Part shown: piece by piece, positions 2,499 through 4,874 of the stretch
Position numbering within the stretch: position 1 is the first letter of the stretch
How the letters are laid out: each line of letters begins with the position of its first letter
Origin: Nitrososphaerota archaeon
GTDB lineage: Archaea; Thermoproteota; Nitrososphaeria; Nitrososphaerales; Nitrosopumilaceae
Assembly (NCBI GenBank): GCA_028867615.1
Contig: JAGWGC010000007.1
Span: forward strand, 1 to 32,087
DNA length: 32,087 nt
Direction of reading: 5' to 3'
Translations under genes and position numbers: made by a program
The notes under the pieces: generated by a model
Databases searched by the model: none
Told to the model about the DNA's origin: nothing
What the model saw: only the letters and a program-made list of their open reading frames with translations

Positions 2499-2579
2499 AG
2501 AACAGGCGTTATGCATAAGAAATTATCCTAAAAATGCCAGATCAGTCACAATATAAGGCATAATAAGATAAGGTGTCAT

Positions 2580-2643
2580 TGCAGAATGATGATTGGGTAT
2601 TCTGATATCATTTGATGAATTATACCTGGGGTATCTGACTGCA
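2580..2643 (+). ncRNA. C/D-box sRNA (2'-O-methylation guide) candidate
   Basis: TGCAG (2580-2584), C box ATGATGA (2586-2592), D' CTGA (2602-2605), C' TGATGA (2613-2618), D CTGA (2635-2638), CTGCA (2639-2643) pairing with TGCAG. TATA-like ATATAAGG about 25 nt upstream. Confidence 0.75.
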
Positions 2644-3332: not shown

Positions 3333-4874
3333 GTGACTAAAGCAAAACGTGTAGAATCAAAACCAAAAGATTCTACACATGATGTTGTCAAGAAAATGTC
3401 TTCAATTTCAGACGCTACCAAGACGCTGGCTTCTGAAGTGAAAACAATGTCAAAAATATTTGCAGAAAATCAAAAAATCCTAATCTCCCTTAAAGATATG
3501 ATATCATCAGTAAACTCTGCATTAGATCAGATTCAGAAAAATTCTAGACAAATAAACATAATTGAAGAAGACACACAGCGCCTGTTTTCTGGAATGACTC
3601 AAGTCAAAGCACATTCCAACTTGATAGACAAAATAAATAGTCAAATAAACAAACTTCAAGATCACGTAGAGAAAATTCGAGATAAACAAGAATCTATGCC
3701 AGATACCAATAAAATCATGCAGAGTATTGCCGATAATCTAGATTCTACTAGGAATAATACCAAAATGATAATGCATGTATCAGAAAAAACGGAGAAGGTG
3801 CGTGAAGAGATTAAAAATGTAATGACTAGTTCAGAATCATTATCCAATATTAGTAATGAGATTGAAGAATTACGAAAAAGTACAAGTGACATATCAACCA
3901 AAACAGAATCACTTTCCAACCTACATCAAGAGATTGAAGAGTTACGAAAAAGTACAAGTGACATATCAACCAAAACAGAATCACTTTCCAACCTACATCA
4001 AGAGATTGAAGAGTTACGAAAAAGTACAAGTGACATATCAACCAAAACAGAATCACTTTCCAACCTACATCAAGAGATTGAAGAAATAAGACAAAATACA
4101 AAGGAAATATCCTCAAAAACTGAAAAAATGTCAGAATTAGAGGAGAGCATGTCAAACTTAAAAGGCGAGATTGGCACCATATCTACAAAGACAGATTCCA
4201 TATCAGGTTTGAGTTCTCAAATAAGAAATGTCGGTTCTGAGATTGATTCGCTTATAAAGAAAACAGATTCTTTGTCTTCATTTGGGGATGACATTAGAAA
4301 CATAAATTCGGAGTTTATCAACTTCCAAGAAAACATGATTAATAAGAGTAAAAATCTTGACGAAAAAATATCAGATTTTGCAGAACTACTAAATAAAAAC
4401 TCGGCATCCATATCAGAGTTTAACAAGAAAACATACGAGATTGCACAACAACTACAGGATGTTCGCAATGTTACCCACAAGACGGCTCAAAACACATCGC
4501 ATGAGGTCATGGGCCTGCTTCGCTTGTCAGAATTCCAGTCAAACATTAGAATGCGCTCTGAATCAAAGTATGGTACGCTGGATGATATTGAGAAAATGGT
4601 GGTGCAAACTAAAGACATTGTGAATCTGTTTGATCGAATTTCTATCGAAGTGGAATCAAAGATGCCATTGCCTACAGAGGTAAAACAATGGAGTATATCC
4701 AAAATTCTTGACTGTGCAGACAGGTGGGAGATAAGGTTTACAGATGTATTCAGACTTTTGATTACAGAACTTGGTTCAGACATTGTAAAAAGAACAATTA
4801 GAATAGAACAGGTTCGTGATCTTTTCGGAATACGAGCAGTTGACGAGATAAGACGTGAATTGAATATTACCTAG
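3333..4874 (+). CDS. Long coiled-coil protein with heptad-like repeats and a conserved-looking C-terminal domain
   Basis: 513 aa, Ser/Lys/Glu-rich helical repeats (IEELRKSTSDISTKTESLSNLHQE x3 plus degenerate copies); globular C-terminus from about SEFQSNIRMRSE. Confidence 0.85.
   Translation: MTKAKRVESKPKDSTHDVVKKMSSISDATKTLASEVKTMSKIFAENQKILISLKDMISSVNSALDQIQKNSRQINIIEEDTQRLFSGMTQVKAHSNLIDKINSQINKLQDHVEKIRDKQESMPDTNKIMQSIADNLDSTRNNTKMIMHVSEKTEKVREEIKNVMTSSESLSNISNEIEELRKSTSDISTKTESLSNLHQEIEELRKSTSDISTKTESLSNLHQEIEELRKSTSDISTKTESLSNLHQEIEEIRQNTKEISSKTEKMSELEESMSNLKGEIGTISTKTDSISGLSSQIRNVGSEIDSLIKKTDSLSSFGDDIRNINSEFINFQENMINKSKNLDEKISDFAELLNKNSASISEFNKKTYEIAQQLQDVRNVTHKTAQNTSHEVMGLLRLSEFQSNIRMRSESKYGTLDDIEKMVVQTKDIVNLFDRISIEVESKMPLPTEVKQWSISKILDCADRWEIRFTDVFRLLITELGSDIVKRTIRIEQVRDLFGIRAVDEIRRELNIT
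3858..4073 (+). repeat. Three 72-bp tandem direct repeats inside the coiled-coil CDS
   Basis: Copies 3858-3929, 3930-4001, 4002-4073; copies 2 and 3 appear identical, copy 1 differs at gaagaa/gaagag; a fourth diverged copy starts at 4074. Confidence 0.95.

What the first reader, a model, noticed from the sequence alone, without database searches (positions are those of the whole stretch)
2580..2643. Uncalled C/D-box sRNA upstream of msrB
Seen directly: a 64-nt unit with C ATGATGA, D' CTGA, C' TGATGA, D CTGA and perfect terminal pairing TGCAG:CTGCA, in an intergenic region with a TATA-like ATATAAGG at the right distance. This is the standard archaeal C/D guide architecture. Guides read TTGGGTATT (D') and ...TACCTGGGGTAT (D), so predicted target complements are AATACCCAA and ATACCCCAGGTA. 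Both guides share GGGTAT, and the D guide can self-pair (ATACC-TGG-GGTAT); either could be functionally relevant.
Basis: partly seen in the sequence, partly recalled or inferred. Interest (0 to 1): 0.7.

Follow-up and report, generated by a model that had tools for sequence, protein, structure and literature searches.

The report
Conserved archaeal rRNA-methylation guide RNA
This is a real small guide RNA gene of an ammonia-oxidising archaeon (Nitrosotalea) that very probably directs a methyl group onto one nucleotide of the ribosome's catalytic centre, and the same guide turns up in many other archaeal families, which is unusual for guides of this kind.

Summary
Window 2580-2643 is a C/D-box sRNA gene. 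A covariance model finds it in 166 of 200 Nitrosopumilaceae genomes (19 of 22 genera). Its boxes are invariant in the genus, its terminal stem shows compensatory changes in 4 of 5 pairs, and in Nitrosotalea a TATA box is conserved 27-29 nt upstream.

The D guide pairs over 9 Watson-Crick bp (13 of 15 nt in all) with 23S rRNA UUACCCCAGGGAUAA at the peptidyl-transferase centre. The +5 rule points to C2441 (E. coli numbering). Units with the same guide core occur in 77 of 398 Thermoproteota genomes (39 genera, 20 families), against none for the reversed pattern. In 36 genomes where guide and 23S were both read, positions 2-10 pair by Watson-Crick or wobble, except for one A.C mismatch in four genomes of one family.

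The D' guide has no supported rRNA or tRNA target. The shared GGGTAT is lineage-specific. The D guide's self-pairing follows from its quasi-palindromic target.

This is a new, unusually conserved member of a known kind. Transcript and methylation were not tested, and hyperthermophile orthologues may already be in published sRNA sets that I could not read.

The parts
2544..2558 (+). Conserved promoter-like element (AGTCACAATATAAGG region; TATAA at 2552-2556, 28 nt upstream of the sRNA stem)
   Evidence: 86% mean identity in 30 Nitrosotalea loci versus 45% further upstream; TATAA lies 27-29 nt before GCAGAATGATGA in 27 of 30, the other three having TATAT
2580..2643 (+). C/D-box sRNA gene, whole unit
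   Evidence: Covariance model R1: 88.1 bits here, matches in 166/200 Nitrosopumilaceae genomes, 19/22 genera
2580..2584 (+). Terminal stem, 5' strand (TGCAG)
   Evidence: 94.2% of cells paired, 4 of 5 pairs with changes on both sides, 0/500 shuffles reach the covariation score
2586..2592 (+). C box ATGATGA
   Evidence: Invariant in 30 Nitrosotalea loci; RTGATGA in all 24 rows of A2
2593..2601 (+). D' guide TTGGGTATT (no supported target; probably an empty or lineage-specific guide)
   Evidence: Varies between lineages; no complement in N. devanaterra rRNAs or tRNAs
2602..2605 (+). D' box CTGA
   Evidence: Invariant in 30 Nitrosotalea loci
2613..2618 (+). C' box TGATGA
   Evidence: Invariant in Nitrosotalea; relaxed to TGAGGA, TGTAGA or TGAAGA in other genera
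2619..2634 (+). D guide ATTATACCTGGGGTAT; positions 2-10 (2625-2633, CCTGGGGTA) pair with 23S rRNA; position 5 is G2630
   Evidence: 100% conserved to the rounding shown in 30 Nitrosotalea loci (one T-to-C in L028); 9 contiguous WC bp and 13/15 WC with 23S UUACCCCAGGGAUAAC
2635..2638 (+). D box CTGA
   Evidence: Invariant
2639..2643 (+). Terminal stem, 3' strand (CTGCA)
   Evidence: Covaries with 2580-2584

Best explanation
The locus is an independently promoted C/D-box sRNA gene. The transcript would fold into a terminal k-turn (C/D) and an internal one (C'/D'), bind L7Ae, Nop5 and fibrillarin, and use its D guide to base-pair with the peptidyl-transferase-centre strand of 23S rRNA (nt 2539-2554 in N. 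devanaterra; E. coli about 2437-2452). Guide positions 2-10 form 9 Watson-Crick pairs, with mismatches at positions 1 and 11 that would limit the duplex. By the +5 rule fibrillarin would 2'-O-methylate C2543 (N. devanaterra 23S numbering; E. coli position 2441). The D' guide has probably no rRNA target. Shown here: architecture, conservation, stem covariation, promoter-like element, guide-target complementarity and its upkeep across families, presence of Nop5 and fibrillarin genes. Inferred: transcription, RNP assembly, methylation.
For: Conservation: DNA similarity in 33 of 61 genomes, all in the genus, and a covariance-model match in 166/200 genomes of the family. Variation is concentrated in the D'-C' spacer (39% identity) while boxes and D guide are at 100%. 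The terminal stem covaries. Target: the best site for the D guide among 16S, 23S and tRNAs is the PTC strand; 8 of 3000 shuffled guides reach 13/15 WC anywhere, and 57 of 3000 reach the run-of-9-plus-13 score. Breadth: the guide core in a C'-like plus D context occurs in 77/398 Thermoproteota genomes with no reversed-control hit in the table, and units with C box and terminal stem are visible in Bathyarchaeota, Calditenuaceae, Sulfolobus-like genomes and others. Pairing upkeep: in 36 genomes with both sequences, positions 2-6, 9 and 10 always pair WC and 7-8 by WC or wobble except A.C in 4; changes at positions 9 and 10 found by the covariance model are C-to-U, which keep wobble pairs. Machinery: adjacent nop5 (PF01798, 9.9e-68) and fibrillarin (PF01269, 3.2e-88) genes in the same genome. 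It meets the nine-base-pair criterion of PMC4644070.
Against: No RNA data were available. The window's own assembly lacks rRNA genes, so the target was read in congeners. Free scanning with GU pairs allowed is not significant (58/300 shuffles). Guide position 7 changes to A in both f18 and f20 genomes but the target follows only in f18, so that covariation is partial (Fisher p=0.03, not corrected for relatedness). Nearly all 16 nt of the guide are invariant within Nitrosotalea, more than the 9-bp pairing requires.
Confidence: 0.86

Rival explanations
1. A C/D sRNA whose D guide mainly acts as a folding chaperone for the PTC strand (helix 74/89 region) during ribosome assembly, with methylation absent or secondary.
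For: The target strand is quasi-palindromic and lies at a multi-helix junction (junction from general knowledge). In four f20 genomes the duplex carries an A.C mismatch plus a wobble, close to position 5, but is still retained. Chaperone roles for C/D sRNAs are discussed in PMC4644070 and PMC7994747.
Against: Positions 2-6, which include the +5 site, are Watson-Crick in all 36 genomes examined, as expected if methylation is selected.
Confidence: 0.06
2. A C/D sRNA whose conserved D guide has another main target (mRNA or other RNA), the 23S match being incidental.
For: The whole 16-nt guide is nearly invariant in Nitrosotalea, including nucleotides that do not pair with 23S. An rRNA match of this length is not overwhelming by itself.
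Against: The part conserved across families is the part that pairs with 23S; positions 1 and 11-16 vary between families. Substitutions inside the core mostly keep pairing. No exact second site was listed in N. devanaterra or G006.
Confidence: 0.05
3. A cis-regulatory L7Ae-binding k-turn in the msrB leader rather than a separate sRNA.
For: It lies 66 nt upstream of msrB on the same strand, and msrB is the neighbour in 28 of 30 Nitrosotalea loci.
Against: No msrB is found in the held DNA around the homologous units outside Nitrosotalea. The TATA-like element fits a start at the sRNA, and a second TTAAAT element lies about 26-31 nt before the msrB start codon. A guide matching rRNA is not expected of a leader k-turn.
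Confidence: 0.02
4. Chance arrangement of C/D-like motifs.
For: The boxes are short and AT-rich intergenic DNA yields TGATGA and CTGA often.
Against: No such arrangement in 60 resampled windows; genus- and family-wide conservation; stem covariation.
Confidence: 0.01

Closest known systems
Archaeal C/D-box sRNAs (double-guide 2'-O-methylation RNPs of Sulfolobus, Pyrococcus, Pyrobaculum, Ignicoccus; PMC4644070, PMC7994747)
   Same: C, D', C' and D boxes, ~60-65 nt, short terminal stem, guides next to D and D', rRNA target near the PTC satisfying the 9-bp and +5 rules.
   Different: The D guide is kept across at least 20 families of one phylum, whereas the literature stresses rapidly evolving guides and few shared sites. 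It has a conserved promoter-like element, which only about 20% of the surveyed genes have (PMC7994747). The D' guide seems empty in Nitrosotalea.
Rfam archaeal C/D families (sR39, sR34, sR17, sR2, sR3)
   Same: Box architecture; weak sub-threshold matches of the sRNA or its homologues.
   Different: All below gathering scores, and none of the displayed consensus sequences contains the CCTGGGGTA guide; no Rfam family describes this RNA.
Eukaryotic snR38/SNORD38-type guides near the same PTC strand (from memory, not tested)
   Same: C/D guides believed to modify a nucleotide in the same rRNA strand.
   Different: Different nucleotide and different guide; recalled only, a lead and not a result.

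Membership tests
Archaeal C/D-box sRNA | C (RUGAUGA), D' (CUGA), C' (UGAUGA) and D (CUGA) boxes in order within ~50-70 nt | tested here: met
   invariant in Nitrosotalea and kept with relaxed C' in other genera
Archaeal C/D-box sRNA | Terminal stem bringing C and D together | tested here: met
   94.2% of cells paired and 4/5 pairs with compensatory changes in alignment A2
Archaeal C/D-box sRNA | At least one guide with 9 or more bp to rRNA or tRNA, ending next to D or D', with the +5 nucleotide paired | tested here: met
   D guide positions 2-10 with 23S nt 2540-2548 of N. devanaterra, position 5 G-C; target read in congeners because the own assembly has no rRNA
Archaeal C/D-box sRNA | Second (D') guide with a target (common, not required) | tested here: not met
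   No supported complement for any D' variant in N. devanaterra 16S, 23S or tRNAs; guides without targets are described (PMC4644070)
Archaeal C/D-box sRNA | Host encodes Nop5 and fibrillarin | tested here: met
   nop5 and fibrillarin are adjacent in G000 contig 232
Archaeal C/D-box sRNA | Host encodes L7Ae | not tested
   Not searched
Archaeal C/D-box sRNA | Expressed as a stable ~60-nt RNA bound by L7Ae, Nop5 and fibrillarin | not testable with these tools
   No transcriptome data were available
Archaeal C/D-box sRNA | 2'-O-methyl at the predicted nucleotide | not testable with these tools
   Needs RiboMeth-seq or primer extension
Known Rfam C/D families | Score at or above the family's gathering threshold | tested here: not met

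The most novel reading that the evidence does not exclude
A single C/D sRNA guide aimed at 23S C2441 (E. coli numbering) in the peptidyl-transferase centre was present early in Thermoproteota and has been inherited ever since in Nitrosopumilaceae, Bathyarchaeia, Calditenuaceae, Sulfolobaceae and others, while its D' guide was replaced repeatedly. That would be a rare deeply conserved archaeal methylation guide and would mark Cm2441 as an ancestral ribosome modification.
Probability: 0.5. Interest if true: 0.55.

Novelty: new member of a known kind. Interest (0 to 1): 0.42.

Why it matters
Archaeal C/D guides are thought to turn over fast, with few methylation sites shared between species. Here one guide to the ribosome's catalytic centre is kept across some 20 families, mesophiles included. 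It supplies a testable ancestral modification site (C2441), a seed for an Rfam family that does not yet exist, and a marker for finding C/D sRNAs in ammonia-oxidising archaea, where I found no annotation of them.

Tried and rejected
Rfam at gathering and relaxed thresholds: no family. Targets for the D' guide: the best was a partly wobble match at 23S nt 139 that is not kept by the sister-clade guides; no hit for TACCCAA or TGACCTA in rRNA or tRNA of N. devanaterra. A second D' site within ~150 nt of the D target: none better than interrupted matches scoring 7. tRNA targets for the D guide: runs of 7-8 at best, including wobbles. Strong guide-target covariation at position 7: looked compensatory in f18 Bathyarchaeota (guide A with U2443), but f20 genomes have guide A with C2443, so it is only partial. 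Literature search for the guide sequence or the methylated position: no relevant hit. The first alignment attempt on unoriented loci was discarded. The pattern search in Nitrosopumilaceae suggested absence from most genera; the covariance model showed that this was due to relaxed C' boxes. The invariance of positions 2-10 in the pattern hits is partly built into the pattern; the covariance-model and DNA-similarity hits are the less biased evidence.

Full report
What is there. It lies between a minus-strand ORF and msrB (SelR, E=1.3e-52). The four-box pattern occurs once in the window and never in 60 resampled windows. Rfam and ARAGORN have nothing at threshold.

Which organism. The genome belongs to Candidatus Nitrosotalea: congener G035 has the same chromosome length and coordinates as N. 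devanaterra LN890280.1, and G013 matches N. bavarica.

Is it a real RNA gene. DNA similarity finds the unit in 32 of 36 congeners and in none of 24 genomes outside the genus. In 30 aligned loci the C, D', C' and D boxes and the D guide are conserved at 100% (one T-to-C change in the guide of L028); the D' guide is 87%, the D'-C' spacer 39% and flanking DNA 45-56%. A TATA element sits 27-29 nt before the stem in 27 of 30 loci, and the other three carry TATAT. A covariance model built from the Nitrosotalea sequences matches 166 of 200 Nitrosopumilaceae genomes in 19 of 22 genera, including a genome with the chromosome length of Nitrosopumilus maritimus SCM1 (G128, 1,645,259 bp; the identification by length is mine). 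In the cross-genus alignment the terminal stem shows changes on both sides in 4 of 5 pairs, for example GCAG:CTGC, CCGG:CCGG and CTGG:CCAG, and no shuffle reaches the covariation score.

Target of the D guide. Among 16S, 23S and tRNAs of N. devanaterra the best site is 23S nt 2539-2554, UUACCCCAGGGAUAAC. It has nine contiguous Watson-Crick pairs at guide positions 2-10, a mismatch at 11, then four more pairs, with -19.5 kcal/mol for the duplex against -2.2 for the guide's own hairpin. With wobble pairs allowed the match is not exceptional (58/300 shuffles). With Watson-Crick pairs only, 13/15 is reached by 8 of 3000 shuffled guides. The sequence is the peptidyl-transferase-centre strand that ends in the catalytic GGGAUAAC; in E. 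coli numbering (from knowledge: A2451 in GAUAAC) the target spans about 2437-2452, and the +5 rule selects C2441, paired with G2630 of the window. The window's own assembly lacks rRNA contigs, so the target was read in congeners, where it is identical.

How far it reaches. An exact search of GTDB species genomes for TGATGA-N-CCTGGGGTATCTGA returned 71 stretches. The archaeal ones, apart from an Altiarchaeota hit, show full C/D units with their own terminal stems in Nitrosotalea, Nitrosopumilus, Nitrosotenuis, Bathyarchaeota, Calditenuaceae and HR02. The bacterial ones lack a C box and are background. A looser pattern matched 77 of 398 Thermoproteota genomes in 39 genera and 20 families, with no reversed-control hit in the table. 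These include Sulfolobus-like genomes, one with the chromosome length of S. acidocaldarius DSM 639 (2,225,959 bp; identification by length is mine), and the hits displayed are complete C/D units. Outside the core CCTGGGGTA the guide varies: position 1 is U, A, G or C and position 11 is A, C or U.

Does pairing persist. In 36 genomes with both guide and 23S, positions 2-6, 9 and 10 are Watson-Crick in all; position 8 is U-A or U.G; position 7 is G-C, A-U or G.U, except in four f20 genomes where it is A.C. The A-U combination in f18 Bathyarchaeota looks compensatory, but the f20 exception makes the covariation partial (Fisher p=0.03 without correction for relatedness). Core changes found by the covariance model in other Nitrosopumilaceae (C9 to U in two, C10 to U in one) preserve wobble pairing.

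The other guide and the side remarks. No variant of the D' guide has a convincing site in rRNA or tRNA; guides without rRNA targets are known (PMC4644070). The GGGTAT shared by both guides is confined to part of Nitrosotalea; relatives have GGGTTT or TAGGTCA. The D guide's self-complementarity mirrors that of its target (CCCCAGGG).

Mechanism. The likeliest function is guided 2'-O-methylation of C2441 by an L7Ae-Nop5-fibrillarin RNP; nop5 and fibrillarin genes are adjacent in this genome. Transcription, RNP assembly and methylation are inferred. A leader k-turn regulating msrB is unlikely, because msrB is the neighbour only in Nitrosotalea among the loci held. A chaperone role remains possible.

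Known or new. It is a member of the archaeal C/D sRNA class. Reviews stress fast-evolving guides and few shared sites (PMC7994747; PMC4644070), so a guide shared by about 20 families is unusual. I could not open the supplementary sRNA lists for S. acidocaldarius or Pyrobaculum, so the hyperthermophile orthologues may already be catalogued; sequence searches of the paper library found no relevant mention.

Noticed in passing
L292-L302, L305, L306, L309-L311 (Thermoproteia and others): The homologous units in many Thermoproteia share a second conserved guide, GAGTCATGCC, before D'; no target for it was found in Nitrosotalea rRNA or tRNA. In those lineages the RNA may be a true double guide.
   Followed up: partly
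L345-L361 (other Nitrosopumilaceae): The D' guide of Nitrosopumilus and relatives is a fairly constant TTAGGTCA, whose complement TGACCTAA is absent from N. devanaterra rRNAs and tRNAs; either an orphan guide or a target outside rRNA and tRNA.
   Followed up: partly
G006 23S rRNA (L063): A 691-nt insertion, probably an intron, interrupts the 23S gene of this Nitrosotalea genome near 23S nt 2037.
   Followed up: no
window 3333-4874: Predicted coiled-coil protein with near-identical in-frame repeats (SNLHQEIEELRKSTSDISTKTES), about three copies in tandem.
   Followed up: no
f20 genomes (L265-L269; 23S in L271, L272, L275, L276): The guide has A at position 7 opposite C2443 in 23S, an A.C mismatch plus a U.G wobble inside the duplex, yet the unit is retained in about 11 genomes.
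   Followed up: partly
window 2606-2612: The own lineage has a 7-nt D'-C' spacer (TATCATT), while many other Nitrosotalea have a shorter one; the internal motif tolerates this change within one genus.
   Followed up: no
L192 (Nitrosotenuis): The minus-strand gene upstream of the sRNA in Nitrosotalea is also found near the unit in this Nitrosotenuis contig, hinting at older synteny on that side than on the msrB side.
   Followed up: no
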